Shown: piece after piece, positions 15,304-46,754 of the stretch | How positions within the stretch are numbered: the stretch's first letter is position 1 | Layout of the letters: every line of letters begins with the position of its first letter | NCBI GenBank assembly: GCA_015295945.1 | Contig: DVED01000202.1 | Span: 1-46,754, forward strand | DNA length: 46,754 bases | Origin: Oscillatoriales cyanobacterium M59_W2019_021 | Lineage (GTDB): Bacteria > Cyanobacteriota > Cyanobacteriia > Cyanobacteriales > Geitlerinemataceae | Reading direction: 5' to 3' | Translations under genes and position numbers: made by a program | Notes under the pieces: model-generated | Told to the model about the DNA's origin: nothing | Database searches by the model: none | The model's input: only the letters and a program-made list of their open reading frames with translations

Positions 15304-18027
15304 TTATTCATTCGATCGATCGCCATTCACTCCACAATTTAGCGAACCTAACGAAGATCGATCAAGTGGCAAATTCAACCTTCTATTCGGCATTTGTGCC
15401 ACCAATTCAACTTGACCTTTCTCGTTGATTATCCAACCTTGTGCTTCGACTAAGGGAGGTGTAGGGTTATCTATCGGTACATCCGAAACCTTCCCCTCGG
15501 GATCGACCCAACCGGAAGAACTGGAAAGCATATCGGTCGGACTTCGGGGAATGCCGCCGCGTCCGGTTGCTACAAATTCGCTGCGTCGAGAGTTTCCCGG
15601 CGAACAGCGAGTATCGAGCAAATCTTCCACATCTACCACATTTTCCGGCAACTTCACCAAACCCGAAGTGGGATCGACCCCTTCCAAATTAATTTCGACC
15701 ACACCGTTAAATTCGGGTCCGAGTGCGGAAGTTGCGGTCAAATCGCTTTGCGGTGTGGGAAAATCGCGAAATTCCGTTCCCAAAACTCCTTGGGTATTAA
15801 TCGTAATTTGACCGCCTTCGCTTTGCTGGGAATTGGCGCTGATATCGCTATTTTCTAATGCGGTTAGAGTGTCGGTATCGATATCAATATTTCCGCCTTT
15901 ACTACCGGAATTGGTACTGATGAGGCTACCGTGACGCAGTTGCATCCCAGATGAACGCACGCGAATATTGCCAAAGTCACCCCGTCCGGTGTCCGATCGA
16001 ATAATGCCATTATCGAGATAAAGGTTATCTGTAACAATATCTATATCTCCGGCTTCTCCTGACTCATTGGTGGGTTCGAGCAACGTTGCTGTTATTACGG
16101 CTCCATCTCGAACGATTAACGTTCCGGTTTGCCGTTTAATATTACCGGAGTTACCGCTGGCATTGAGTTGAGAACTGACGAATAAACCACTGTCAAATAA
16201 GCCACTATTTTGACCGACCAATTCTACAAATTCTGAAGCTTTAACATCGATCGTGCCACCCGTACCCGAACCCCAAGTTACTGCTTGAATTTGCGCTCCA
16301 TTCCGGACAATTAAGCGTGGAGTTTCAATAGTAATATATCCTCCAGATCCACTATTTTCCGTCGTTGTGCCAACAGTGCTATGAAAGGAATTAATGGGAT
16401 CTTCTATGTTAATATTTTTTCCAAAAAGTTCGATTGATTCTGATGCAACTAGGAGAATATTACCTGCTCGACCTGATGCAAATGCTAGCGTGTAAATTTG
16501 CGATCCATCTTCGATGACTAATCTTCTAGTTTCAATTGTTATATTTCCAGCCGAACCCGAGCTAAAACTTACAGATTGTAAATTGCTAGAACCAAATCCA
16601 AATGGCTTGCCTCTGACTAGTACGTTAATAAAGGTTGGAGAAGAAACTAATTCAACCCAATCTGAAGCCGTAACCGTTAAGTTTCCCCCGCGACCTTCTG
16701 CTATAGAAGTTGTAATCAACAATCCTCCATCATACACACCTAAACGTTGTGTCGAGAGGGTTAAGTTTCCTGCTGCACCCGTCCCATCTGTTCCCGTAAT
16801 GAGTGCCGAGCGATTGACGTTAACCGCATCTGTTGCCGTAACCTCTAACGCTCCGCCGCGTCCTCGATCGAAGGTGGAAGTTGCAACGATCGCCCCATTC
16901 TCGAGAAATAATCGAGCGGTCTGAATGCTGATATTTCCGGCATCTCCTTCTCCGAAACTGACGGCAAATATACCATCACTAATGTCATCTAAATTAAACC
17001 GACTTTCAGCTAAATCTAATACGATTGAAAGTAAATTTCCTCTACCACTGAGATCGATCTCATCCGACGCCTCCAGAGTGACATCTCCTCCTCTGCCACT
17101 TCCCTCCGTCGCCGTTGAAATTAACGAGCCCTCTTCTAATAAAAATCGATCGGCATGAATGGCTATTCCCCGACCATTTTCACTCCCCAATGTCTTCGAT
17201 AAAATTGCCGATTCTCCGGTGAGGAAAACCCGTCCTCCCCACAACTGAATCTCACCCCCACCCATCCCACTCGCATCGAGAACCGATTGTTGAGAAATCT
17301 CGAGATTTCCAAATTGTTCGACATTTTCGGATTCCCAGGCGAATGAGGTTGGGTTGAAGCTAACTTGACTGCCTGCTGCCACACTCCCCACTTCAATTCT
17401 TCCCTCGGGTGCCCTTAAAGACGCATCCTCCAGCTTGACATTGCCGCCAACCAGTGACAAAGTGCGATCGGGTTCGACCTCTAAAGTGGAAGAACGGACT
17501 AAAATTTGACCCGGATTTTCCCCAAATTGCAATCCGATGGGAACGTTAATCGTCAGCAACGGTGGCGCATCCGGTTCCGTCGCACTGTAGAAACTGCCAT
17601 CGGCAAATACCAAACTTTCGGCGGTACTGCCAAAAAACGATCCCCCAATCTGTAACTGCGCGTTCGGTCCAAAAACAATGCCGTTGGGATTGACCAGAAA
17701 TAGGTTCGCCGTACCGTTGGCGCGAATTAACCCGTCGATGTGCGAGGCATTTGTCCCCGTGATGCGCGTCAGGATGTTTTCGACAGTAACGGGATTGTTA
17801 AAAAAGGCTTCCCATCCCGTGGGAACAGAAAAGTCGGTAAAACTGTGAAACAAATTGCCGCCAACTTGGGTTCCCCCTTCGATGACTGAGGTATTGTTGA
17901 TGGGAGGAAGAACGATCGAATTCTGGGGTAGCGTCCCATCCGGCACGATTTGTGCCACTGCTGACGGGATGCCGCTCAAGCTGGAGAGAACAAGGGCGAT
18001 TGTGAGTCCGGATGCACCGAGTTTCAT
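15304..18027 (-). CDS. Two-partner-secretion exoprotein (filamentous hemagglutinin N-terminal domain)
   Basis: A 907-residue secreted protein. A signal peptide ends near residue 25 (SAVAQ). It is followed by the TPS/haemagglutination-activity domain, with the hallmark FLVNPNGIVFG near residues 115-125. The rest is a long beta-helix of imperfect repeats (patterns such as GRGGxxxxxASDxVEL and SGSAGNITIET). The C-terminal 150 residues include a short cysteine pair (DTRCSPG and LNCGVN). Such proteins leave the cell through a TpsB/FhaC-type outer membrane partner, which is not in this window. The length is normal for cyanobacterial members. The start ATG at 18025-18027 is divergent from recQ with only about 100 nt between them. 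A TPR-CHAT protease gene, often found near such exoproteins, lies 2 kb away. Confidence 0.9.
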   Translation of the reverse strand: MKLGASGLTIALVLSSLSGIPSAVAQIVPDGTLPQNSIVLPPINNTSVIEGGTQVGGNLFHSFTDFSVPTGWEAFFNNPVTVENILTRITGTNASHIDGLIRANGTANLFLVNPNGIVFGPNAQLQIGGSFFGSTAESLVFADGSFYSATEPDAPPLLTINVPIGLQFGENPGQILVRSSTLEVEPDRTLSLVGGNVKLEDASLRAPEGRIEVGSVAAGSQVSFNPTSFAWESENVEQFGNLEISQQSVLDASGMGGGEIQLWGGRVFLTGESAILSKTLGSENGRGIAIHADRFLLEEGSLISTATEGSGRGGDVTLEASDEIDLSGRGNLLSIVLDLAESRFNLDDISDGIFAVSFGEGDAGNISIQTARLFLENGAIVATSTFDRGRGGALEVTATDAVNVNRSALITGTDGTGAAGNLTLSTQRLGVYDGGLLITTSIAEGRGGNLTVTASDWVELVSSPTFINVLVRGKPFGFGSSNLQSVSFSSGSAGNITIETRRLVIEDGSQIYTLAFASGRAGNILLVASESIELFGKNINIEDPINSFHSTVGTTTENSGSGGYITIETPRLIVRNGAQIQAVTWGSGTGGTIDVKASEFVELVGQNSGLFDSGLFVSSQLNASGNSGNIKRQTGTLIVRDGAVITATLLEPTNESGEAGDIDIVTDNLYLDNGIIRSDTGRGDFGNIRVRSSGMQLRHGSLISTNSGSKGGNIDIDTDTLTALENSDISANSQQSEGGQITINTQGVLGTEFRDFPTPQSDLTATSALGPEFNGVVEINLEGVDPTSGLVKLPENVVDVEDLLDTRCSPGNSRRSEFVATGRGGIPRSPTDMLSSSSGWVDPEGKVSDVPIDNPTPPLVEAQGWIINEKGQVELVAQMPNRRLNLPLDRSSLGSLNCGVNGDRSNE

Positions 18028-18124
18028 GAGTCAGGCAAGATGGTCGATCGCCAGTATTTTATGCTAGAAAGCAATAAAGATCTCTAAATTTTTGCAAAAT
18101 TTCTCTGACTTTCAGGCGATCGCT

Positions 18125-19558
18125 ATGACCGATAATCAGTGGACACAAGTTCGGGAAACCTTCCAAAAACTGTGGGGATACGAGGACTTTCGGTATCCCC
18201 AAGGGGAAATCGTCCGATCGCTCTTGCAGCACCAAGATGCCTTAGTCGTGTTGCCAACGGGGGGCGGAAAATCCATCTGTTTTCAACTTCCGGCGCTCTT
18301 ACAAACCGGGTTAACTTTGGTAATTTCACCGTTAGTGGCACTGATGGAAAATCAAGTCAAAGAATTGCGCGATCGCCGCTTACCTGCGACTGCCTTACAC
18401 TCAGAAATTCCCCGATTTCAAACCAAGGAAATTCTCCAAGGAATTGCTCAAAATCGCTTTCGATTGCTGTATCTTTCCCCAGAAACGTTACTCAGTCCTA
18501 AAGTATGGGAAATCCTCACAAAACCCGAGATTGCCATTAACGGATTAATTCTCGACGAAGCCCATTGTTTGGTACAGTGGGGCGATACCTTTCGTCCCGC
18601 ATATCGCCGTTTGGGAGCAGTTCGAGAAGCCTTGCTGAAGTGCAAACCCGCCGGAACCCGCATCCCCGTCGCCGCCTTCACCGCCACTGCCGACCCCGCC
18701 GCACAGCAAACCATCCGCCAAGTCTTGCAACTGAAATCGCCCCAACTTTTCTTACAAAACCCCTATCGTGCCAACCTCGCCTTAACCGTCCGCATTGCCT
18801 GGACGCCGCGCGGACGGAAACAACAGTTACATCAATTCATCCAGGCGCATCCCCGACAAACCGGGCTAATTTACGCCCGAACGCGCCAGGATACGGAACG
18901 GTTAGCCAACCAGTTGCGGGACGCCGGATATGCCACGGCGGCGTACCATGCCGGGTTGAGTCCCCAGGAGAGACGATCGATCGAGAATCTCTGGTTAGAG
19001 GGTAAGTTACCGTTCGTGGTGTGTACCTCTGCTTTTGGCATGGGGGTGAATAAAAGTAACGTGCGCTGGGTCGTCCATTTCCAAGCGCCTGCTTTGTTAT
19101 CGGAGTACGTGCAAGAAGTGGGACGGGCGGGACGGGACGGCAAACCCGCCTCAGTCCTGACTCTGGTGAGCGAACCGACAGGAATTCTCGATCCCACCGA
19201 CAAACAGCGCTGGGACTTTTTCCAAGAACGCGGGCGCTCGCAAATTCAACGCGCCCGCCAACTGGCAAAGAAACTCCCCCCCCAAGGCAACATCCTCGAA
19301 GTTTCCCGGCAATACCCAGATAGTCCGATCGCCCTGTCCGTCCTCCACAGTACCGGACAACTGCAATGGATCGATCCCTTCCGCTACCGAATTCTTCCCG
19401 CTAAAACCGCCCCAACCGCGAATCTCGACGCCGCCAAACAAATGGCGCAGTATCTCAACACCCGCTACTGTCGCTGGCAGTTTCTCCTCCAAGCTTTTGG
19501 ATTTGGCAAAGAAGCACGGGGATTGCGTTGCGGCAAGTGCGATCGGTGTCGGGAATAG
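18125..19558 (+). CDS. recQ: RecQ-type ATP-dependent DNA helicase
   Basis: A superfamily 2 3'-5' helicase of 477 residues. Motifs appear in order: LPTGGGKS (Walker A), LDEAHCLVQWG (the DEAH box with the RecQ aromatic-rich-loop position), AFTATADP, TGLIYARTR, AYHAGLSPQERR, GMGVNKSNVRWVVHF and EYVQEVGRAGRDG (motif VI). The C-terminus has GLRCGKCDRC, a short cysteine cluster rather than a full RecQ zinc/winged-helix plus HRDC. It is thus one of the short cyanobacterial RecQ proteins. I chose ATG 18125; an upstream in-frame TTG at 18092 is less likely. It unwinds recombination and replication intermediates in the cytosol. It is divergent from the exoprotein gene, with no sign of an operon. Confidence 0.92.
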   Translation: MTDNQWTQVRETFQKLWGYEDFRYPQGEIVRSLLQHQDALVVLPTGGGKSICFQLPALLQTGLTLVISPLVALMENQVKELRDRRLPATALHSEIPRFQTKEILQGIAQNRFRLLYLSPETLLSPKVWEILTKPEIAINGLILDEAHCLVQWGDTFRPAYRRLGAVREALLKCKPAGTRIPVAAFTATADPAAQQTIRQVLQLKSPQLFLQNPYRANLALTVRIAWTPRGRKQQLHQFIQAHPRQTGLIYARTRQDTERLANQLRDAGYATAAYHAGLSPQERRSIENLWLEGKLPFVVCTSAFGMGVNKSNVRWVVHFQAPALLSEYVQEVGRAGRDGKPASVLTLVSEPTGILDPTDKQRWDFFQERGRSQIQRARQLAKKLPPQGNILEVSRQYPDSPIALSVLHSTGQLQWIDPFRYRILPAKTAPTANLDAAKQMAQYLNTRYCRWQFLLQAFGFGKEARGLRCGKCDRCRE

Positions 19559-20008: not shown

Positions 20009-22612
20009 ATGAAACGATCGAAAAAAGCGATGGGGATAGTGACGATTGCCCTGCTTCTATCCCTCGGTTCGGTGGGTTGGGCGCAGACCGAAAACGGGGG
20101 GAGCGAATCGGCTTTACAACTCTATCAAACGGGCGTCGAACAGTATCGCCAAGGTGAGTTAGACGCTGCTTTGCAAACCTTCGATCGGTTCCTGGAAATC
20201 GTCCGCGCCACCGAAAACTCCCAAGGGGAAAGCGTGGCTCTCAACCAAATCGGCTTGATTTATGCCGAACGGGGAAAACCGCAAGAAGCGCTGGAGCTTT
20301 ACCAACAAGCTTTGGCGATCGCCGAGTCGATCGACGATCACCAAACCCAAGGAAAGATCCTCAATAATATCGGTGCGATTTACTCGAAATTATACCAATA
20401 TTCTCAAGCCCTTTCTTTTTACCAACGCGGTTTAGAGATTTTGCGGCAAGGGGACGATCTCGCAGCGCAAATCGAAAGTTTCAATAATGTGGGGCTGACC
20501 CAATTGGAATTGGGTCAAACAGACGCGGCGAGAACGAGTTTTGCCGAAGCGCTGACGCTCGCCCGAAAACTTGAAGATCTCGCTTTAGAAGGGCGCACGC
20601 TGAGCTATCTCGGCAATGCAGACAGCCAACTGGGACGCTATGCCGATGCTTTACAGAATTATAACGACGCTCTGACCCTCAACCGAGACACGGGAGATCG
20701 CCTCGCCGAAGGAACCACCCTGACCGGGTTGGCATTGGTTTACAGCCACCTGGGACGGGACGAAACCGCGCGATCGCTTTACGAACAAGCGCTAACCATT
20801 GTCCGAGAAACGAGAGATCGCAGTACCGAAGCGCAAATTCTCACGGGGTTGGGGTTGGTATACGGCAACCTGGGAGACCCCGACGCCGCCCTCAACGCTT
20901 ACCAGCAGGGATTAGCGATCCAGCAAGAACTGGGGGAAGAAATCGCTGCCGAGGCAACGCTGGTGGGGTTAGCGCAAGCGTACGAAAATTTGGGACAGAT
21001 GGAAACGGCACTGCAATATTACCAGCAAGCGCTGAGTGCGAGTCAAACTTCCGAAGATCGCGCCACCGAAGCCACCATTCTCAACAATATCGGCGGGTTT
21101 TACCAAAAATTGGGACAGTGGTCGGAGGCAGTAGAGTTTTACCAACGGGCGCTGGCAATCGCCCGAGACTCGGGAAATCGCGCTACCGAAGGCACGGCGC
21201 GAACCAACATCGGCGCGACCTTCGTGGCGGCGGGACAATGGGCGGATGCCGAAGCCGAATTGCGCGGGGCGATCGAGATTTGGGAAAGCTTGCGAACCGG
21301 GTTGAGCGATGCCGATCAAGTGGCGATTTTCGACAAGCGATCGATCGCTTACGATTTGTGGCAACGAGCCTTAGTCGAACAAGAGCGGGTAGCCGATGCC
21401 CTGGAAGTTGCCGAACGGGGACGGGCGCGGGCATTTGTAGAATTGCTGTCGTTGCGGGTCGGAGAGCGATCGGCAGCGGAATTTGCCGCCCCTGCTGCCC
21501 TCAGCTTTGGGGAAATCCAACGAGTTGCCGCCGAGAGCCATGCCACCTTAGTGGAATATGCGATCGTCGAAGATCGACTCTATATTTGGGTCGTTTCGCC
21601 CGACGGCAATCTCGAGTTTCGATCGGTCGTCCTCGATCGAGCGATTCCCGACATTGCCGTTGCTGCCAATCGGGGGGCGCAATTGAGTCGGGGGATGTCC
21701 GATTGGGTGCGGGGCATCCGAGGCGACACTTCAGAATCCGCCGAAACCGTCACCACCCGCTTGCAGAAAAGCTACAACGCCTTCATCGCTCCGATCGCCG
21801 ATCTCTTACCCGACGATCCCGAAGCCAACGTCGTCATCATTCCCCACAAAGAACTCTTCCTGGTTCCCTTCGCCGCCTTACAAGCCCCCGACGGTCGCTA
21901 TCTCGTCGAAACCCACACCCTCTCGATCGCCCCGTCCATCCAAGTTCTCCATCTGGCAAACCAACAAAAAGCCGGAATGCAACCCTCCCCCACTGCCGGA
22001 GCGCTGGTAGTCGGCAACCCCACCATGCCCGAAATTACCTGAGAACCGGGACTTCCCCCAGAACCCTTAGACCCCCTCCCTGGCGCCCAAGTGGAAGCCG
22101 AAGAAATTGCCCGCCTCCTGAACGCCCAACCCCTGATCGGGTCGGCAGCCACCGAATCCGCCGTTGTTGCCGCCCTCCCCAACGCCCGCATCGTCCACTT
22201 AGCAACCCACGGCTTCCTCAGCGATTTCGGCACGGGCATCCCCGGCGCCTTGGCTCTCGCGCCCTCTGCCACCGACGACGGCTTACTCACCGCCCGCGAA
22301 ATCTTCAACTTGCGCCTCAATGCCGAATTGGTGGCTCTCAGCGCGTGCGATACGGGCAGGGGAACCATCACCGGAGATGGCGTAATTGGCTTGTCCCGCG
22401 CCTTCATCACCGCAGGCGTCCCCTCGTTGTTAGTGTCGCTGTGGGCGGTTCCCGACGCACCCACCCAAGAACTCACCGTCGAATTTTACCGCCAACTGGA
22501 AACCCACCCCGACAAAGCGCGGGCGTTGCGGCAAGCCATGTTGCACATGATGCAGAAATACCCGAAACCTCGGGATTGGGGGGCATTTATTCTGGTCGGC
22601 ACGGCTGAATGA
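20009..22612 (+). pseudogene. TPR-CHAT protease gene interrupted by an in-frame TGA
   Basis: One reading frame of 868 codons is broken by a single TGA at 22040-22042 (codon 678). Before the stop are a signal-like N-terminus (LLLSLGSVGWAQ), about ten 40-residue TPR units, and the first half of a CHAT (caspase HetF-associated with TPRs) domain, ending in VVGNPTMPEIT. After the stop the same frame resumes with the rest of CHAT, including the catalytic His734 in LATHG and Cys780 in LSACDTG. The truncated 677-residue product would lack both catalytic residues. No frameshift is needed to restore the protein. It could be a recent nonsense mutation, an assembly error, or TGA read-through. ATG 20009 is chosen as start (GTG at 20006 is adjacent), with GGGGG upstream. 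CHAT-TPR proteins of cyanobacteria often accompany two-partner-secretion exoproteins. Confidence 0.88.
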
Positions 22613-46664: not shown

Positions 46665-46754
46665 GAACCTGGCACTGAGCTATTGTCCCAGGAGGCAACC
46701 CTCCAAGTATCTTGGCCGCAGAAGCGTTTCACCTCCGAGTTCGGGATGGGATCG
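46665..46754 (-). rRNA. rrf: 5S ribosomal RNA (partial, 3' part)
   Basis: Read on the minus strand this holds CCCATCCCGAACTCGG, GTGAAAC and the closing TGCCAGGTTC, which are conserved 5S rRNA elements (loop B/C region and 3' end of helix I). The 5' portion lies beyond the window edge. The gene is leftward, so 16S and 23S should lie upstream, outside to the right. The bidirectional terminator follows about 20 nt after its 3' end. Confidence 0.93.

What the first reader, a model, noticed from the sequence alone, without database searches (positions are those of the whole stretch)
20009..22612. TPR-CHAT protease split by a single TGA just before its catalytic dyad
Codon 678 is TGA, while the same frame continues for 190 codons with the complete catalytic half (His734 in LATHG, Cys780 in LSACDTG). 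No other lesion is seen in 868 codons. The TPR part alone would be a binding-only protein. CHAT proteases are effectors in several bacterial defence and death systems, so loss, read-through or conditional expression of the catalytic half would matter.
Basis: partly seen in the sequence, partly recalled or inferred. Interest (0 to 1): 0.6.

Follow-up and report, generated by a model that had tools for sequence, protein, structure and literature searches.

The report
Secreted TPR-CHAT protease gene with nonsense codon
One of about 39 caspase-like (CHAT) protease genes in this cyanobacterium is cut by a single stop codon just before its active site; everything tested points to an ordinary, recent loss of function in a large redundant family, with no sign of programmed read-through.

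Summary
In detail: at 22040-22042 a TGA interrupts an otherwise open 867-codon TPR-CHAT frame, and the downstream part keeps His734 and Cys780. The stop falls in a variable, gap-tolerant loop. Relatives carry P, T, L, A, V, F and others there, or nothing; none has Trp or Cys. No recoding machinery was found (no SelB or tRNA-Sec above cut-off, no unusual RNA fold after the TGA), and the only in-frame restart before the dyad (GTG 22091) has no ribosome-binding site. In the predicted fold the stop separates the first strand of the caspase-like sheet from the rest, so neither half should work alone. The catalytic half still fits its family profile as well as intact members do, and no second lesion is present, so the stop is young (or, less likely, a sequence error). 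The genome holds 39 CHAT matches; at least three others are frameshifted or truncated remnants, and related species also carry isolated stops. A signal peptide, common in the subfamily, suggests an extracytoplasmic protease rather than a cytosolic phage-defence effector. Best reading: a recent nonsense allele of one redundant paralogue. Interest is low. No sister strain or reads could be examined.

The parts
20009..20083 (+). Sec-type signal peptide, residues 1-25, MKRSKKAMGIVTIALLLSLGSVGWA|Q
   Evidence: Sequence; strict motif found in 59 of 78 related proteins against 71 of 265 control ORFs
20114..21298 (+). TPR repeat region (about residues 36-430)
   Evidence: Pfam TPR_12 and other TPR models
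21299..22039 (+). linker and N-terminal part of CHAT, ending with the first strand of the caspase-like sheet (residues 664-669)
   Evidence: Pfam CHAT profile 4-89; AF2 model
22040..22042 (+). internal TGA stop, codon 678, in a variable loop between strand 664-669 and helix 691-703
22043..22612 (+). catalytic half of CHAT downstream of the stop, with the natural stop
   Evidence: Pfam CHAT 101-288, E 8e-56; leave-one-out HMM 1.55 bits per residue, mid-range for the family
22208..22210 (+). His734 codon of the catalytic dyad
22346..22348 (+). Cys780 codon of the catalytic dyad

Best explanation
A recent nonsense mutation has inactivated one member of a large paralogous family of secreted TPR-CHAT (caspase/separase-like) cysteine proteases. 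The intact gene would make an exported protein whose TPR solenoid binds a partner and controls a C-terminal His-Cys protease. Here translation stops in the loop after the first strand of the protease sheet, so the product is a signal peptide, TPR, linker and an incomplete CHAT fold with no active site; the catalytic half is not translated. The lesion is tolerated because intact paralogues of the same subfamily remain. Shown: the stop, the intact downstream frame, the non-conserved position, absence of recoding signals, paralogue redundancy and other broken copies. Inferred: export, that the product is inactive, and that the lesion is young.
For: Single TGA in an otherwise open frame. Codon 678 is in a variable, gap-tolerant loop; P 11, none 6, T 5, L 4 and others among 35 relatives, no Trp or Cys. 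No tRNA-Sec or SelB above cut-off. Following RNA folds no better than shuffles, z +0.5 to +0.9. Only in-frame start before the dyad is GTG 22091 without an SD. AF2 model (pLDDT 85.7) puts the stop between strand 235-240 and helix 262-274, with all later core strands downstream. 39 CHAT matches in the genome; C172 is frameshifted twice, C174 and C5 are C-terminal remnants and C5 has lost the catalytic Cys. Homologues in other species carry isolated in-frame TAA or TAG. Catalytic half still scores mid-range for the family, so decay is recent.
Against: Only one lesion, so decay itself has not been seen to proceed. No sister strain or ortholog closer than about 51% was found, so the ancestral codon is unknown. 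No reads, so a base-call error cannot be excluded.
Confidence: 0.74

Rival explanations
1. The TGA is a sequencing or assembly error in a draft genome, and the gene is intact.
For: Draft in 212 contigs; no second lesion; the downstream half is fully family-like.
Against: The local DNA is unique in the genome (next best 73% over 114 bases), so no paralogue collapse. The frame continues unshifted, so it is not a homopolymer indel. Other broken CHAT copies show that real decay happens here.
Confidence: 0.14
2. The truncated secreted TPR protein is functional as a binding-only protein or decoy, and the downstream part is a relic.
For: Signal peptide and TPR part are intact and family-like.
Against: The product also carries a broken CHAT piece that should not fold; no TPR-only relative ending at this place was seen among the loci examined. 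Cannot be tested by selection without close relatives.
Confidence: 0.08
3. Programmed expression of the catalytic half: UGA read-through, selenocysteine, or re-initiation giving a two-chain protease.
For: Downstream frame is clean and conserved; the split falls in a loop.
Against: No Sec machinery above cut-off, no structured element, no conserved Trp/Cys/stop at the site in any relative, no SD before GTG 22091, and that start would lack the first sheet strand.
Confidence: 0.04

Closest known systems
Cyanobacterial secreted TPR-CHAT proteins (subfamily with N-terminal '...AQT' signal peptide)
   Same: Same architecture, about 38-51% identity, same His-Cys motifs, signal peptide
   Different: Relatives are uninterrupted at this position
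Csx29 / TPR-CHAT of Craspase (type III-E CRISPR)
   Same: Linker-CHAT model matches Csx29 (7y9x_B) with Z 29.7 over 357 residues, rmsd 3.8, and TPR-CHAT with Z 29.4; His-Cys dyad (PMC9729208)
   Different: No CRISPR or gRAMP family found in the window ORFs scanned; probably exported rather than cytosolic; 16-17% identity
Eukaryotic separase
   Same: Caspase-like sheet with His-Cys dyad; Z about 25
   Different: Only the fold is shared
DdvA, transmembrane anti-sigma factor with CHAT (8rot)
   Same: Top Foldseek hit, and the only solved chain found by sequence
   Different: A transmembrane anti-sigma factor by its title; larger protein (991 aa)
HetF of Anabaena
   Same: Cyanobacterial CHAT protein with TPRs
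   Different: HetF has CHAT at its N-terminus (aa 1-555) with transmembrane and TPR parts (PMC8406250)

Membership tests
CHAT protease (PF12770) | CHAT domain match over the whole profile | tested here: met
   Profile 4-288 with 1 TGA inside, 247 bits
CHAT protease (PF12770) | His-Cys dyad translated in the product | tested here: not met
   Dyad codons lie downstream of the stop; so the gene is an interrupted family member, not a working protease as read
Pseudogene / nonsense allele | Inactivating lesion relative to intact relatives | tested here: met
   The 35 relatives in A2 are open through this position
Pseudogene / nonsense allele | Accumulated further lesions or relaxed selection | tested here: inconclusive
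   No second lesion; profile score mid-range; 4 and 3 departures at near-invariant sites before and after the stop, at the high end of the family
Pseudogene / nonsense allele | Same or additional lesions in sister strains | not testable with these tools
   No same-genus genome held; no ortholog in family genomes
Selenoprotein or UGA read-through gene | Sec machinery in genome and Cys/Sec at the site in relatives | tested here: not met
Craspase TPR-CHAT (Csx29) | Encoded next to Cas7-11/gRAMP | tested here: not met
   No CRISPR family at cut-off among the window ORFs scanned; not searched genome-wide
Anti-phage defence effector (PADLOC models) | Match of the catalytic half to a defence model | tested here: not met
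   0 families for the catalytic half; mostly generic TPR models for the upstream part

The most novel reading that the evidence does not exclude
The TGA is a maintained, conditionally bypassed or re-initiated stop that makes a secreted two-part CHAT protease.
Probability: 0.03. Interest if true: 0.7.

Novelty: new member of a known kind. Interest (0 to 1): 0.12.

Why it matters
Mostly as a calibration: a clean open frame past a stop with an intact active site looks like recoding, but the site's variability, the paralogue number and the remnants elsewhere in the genome point to ordinary turnover in a large protease family. It would matter only if strains kept the stop while the catalytic half stayed under selection.

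Tried and rejected
Selenocysteine or other recoding. Re-initiation. Paralogue collapse in assembly. Ancestral codon through synteny: the neighbourhood around ndhM is not kept in ten family genomes. Close orthologs in genome contigs and viral contigs by single-protein search: none. Ka/Ks was not attempted: the nearest relatives are at most about 51% identical, too far for synonymous sites to be informative. Two-partner-secretion partnership of this gene: a TPS gene is near, but on the opposite strand with recQ between, and only 2 of 78 subfamily loci have a TPS gene detected nearby, so I do not claim it. No published TPS-CHAT link found in the paper library. The first alignment used minus-strand loci unreversed and was discarded.

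Full report
Observation. The frame from ATG 20009 to 22612 holds a single internal stop, TGA at 22040-22042, codon 678. Upstream are a signal peptide, TPR repeats and the first part of a CHAT domain (Pfam profile 4-89); downstream is the rest (101-288, E 8e-56) with His734 and Cys780. The gene is real and interrupted.

What stands at codon 678 elsewhere. I aligned about 50 homologues from own and related genomes and 35 named cyanobacterial ones. The position lies between the conserved GNPTMP and LPGA motifs, in a stretch of variable length. At the exact column the 35 relatives have P 11, no residue 6, T 5, L 4, A 2, V 2, F 2, K, S, N. None has Trp or Cys. A stop conserved for read-through, or a Sec codon, would be expected to leave a pattern here; there is none.

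Recoding signals. tRNA-Sec and SelB give only sub-threshold matches, best 43.6 bits against 47 and 189 against 242. RNA after the TGA folds no better than shuffles. The first in-frame start after the stop is GTG 22091, with CTCCCTGGCGCCCAA before it and no SD; later ones lie past the His codon. TGA is a normal stop here, ending 5 of 27 long ORFs in the window.

Structure. An AF2 model of residues 430-867 from the read-through frame and 35 relatives has mean pLDDT 85.7 and pTM 0.89. Codon 678 is model residue 249, in the loop between strand 235-240 and helix 262-274. The strands leading to the His (297-304) and the Cys (345-350) and two later ones are all downstream. From established knowledge of clan CD proteases, the first strand sits in the middle of the sheet, so neither half should fold as a protease alone (inference). 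Solved matches are Craspase TPR-CHAT/Csx29 (Z 29.7), separase (Z about 25) and DdvA.

State of the downstream half. A leave-one-out profile gives 1.55 bits per residue for the catalytic half, rank 21 of 45 family members. At near-invariant sites it departs at 3 of 60 after the stop and 4 of 37 before it, at the high end of the family, with no excess after the stop. About 4% of random substitutions in this frame would make a stop (325 of 7794), so the absence of a second stop allows at most about 70 neutral substitutions (my estimate, 3/0.042). The lesion is young or an error.

Family context. The genome has 39 CHAT matches. The closest paralogues (C204, C65, C89, C165; 41-51%) are open, although C204 runs off a contig end. 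C172 is shifted through three frames and meets a contig end; C174 and C5 keep only the C-terminal third of CHAT, and C5 reads LSAGDTG in place of LSACDTG. In other species L024 has one TAA and L040 two, at other positions, and among the listed family rows one further CHAT has a TAG. Single lesions are part of normal turnover in this family.

Function of the intact type. The signal peptide MKRSKKAMGIVTIALLLSLGSVGWA|Q is matched by 59 of 78 relatives with a strict motif against 71 of 265 control ORFs. An extracytoplasmic TPR-regulated protease is therefore likely (inference).

Limits. No same-genus genome is held, no family genome has an ortholog or the same neighbourhood, and no reads are available. 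The ancestral codon and the age cannot be settled, and an error in the sequence keeps about 14%.

Noticed in passing
window 15304-18027 (-): Two-partner-secretion exoprotein (TPS domain PF05860), two genes from the CHAT gene. In this genome about half of the 24 TPS matches lie next to or in the same open frame as a CHAT domain (fused in C50, C112, C143, C72; near in C124, C197, C25, C161, C187, C172, C151, C107); 8 of 20 non-fused within about 5 kb, chance about 0.001 by a simple binomial. Co-directional TPS-CHAT pairs also occur in family genomes. No paper found.
   Followed up: partly
G000:C190:3083-4114 and G000:C99:29023-29961: Only two ShlB-type TPS transporters for some 24 TPS matches.
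   Followed up: no
L099 (G000:C172:5500-8816): Divergent TPS gene next to a CHAT gene broken by two frame changes before the contig end.
   Followed up: partly
L102:287-616 (G000:C5): CHAT remnant with the catalytic Cys replaced by Gly in LSACDTG.
   Followed up: no
window 46667-46754 (-): 5S rRNA at the contig end, cut off, so the contig probably breaks at a ribosomal operon.
   Followed up: no
window 18092-19558 (+): RecQ-family helicase of only 488 aa; Pfam finds DEAD, Helicase_C and a weak zinc-binding domain only.
   Followed up: no
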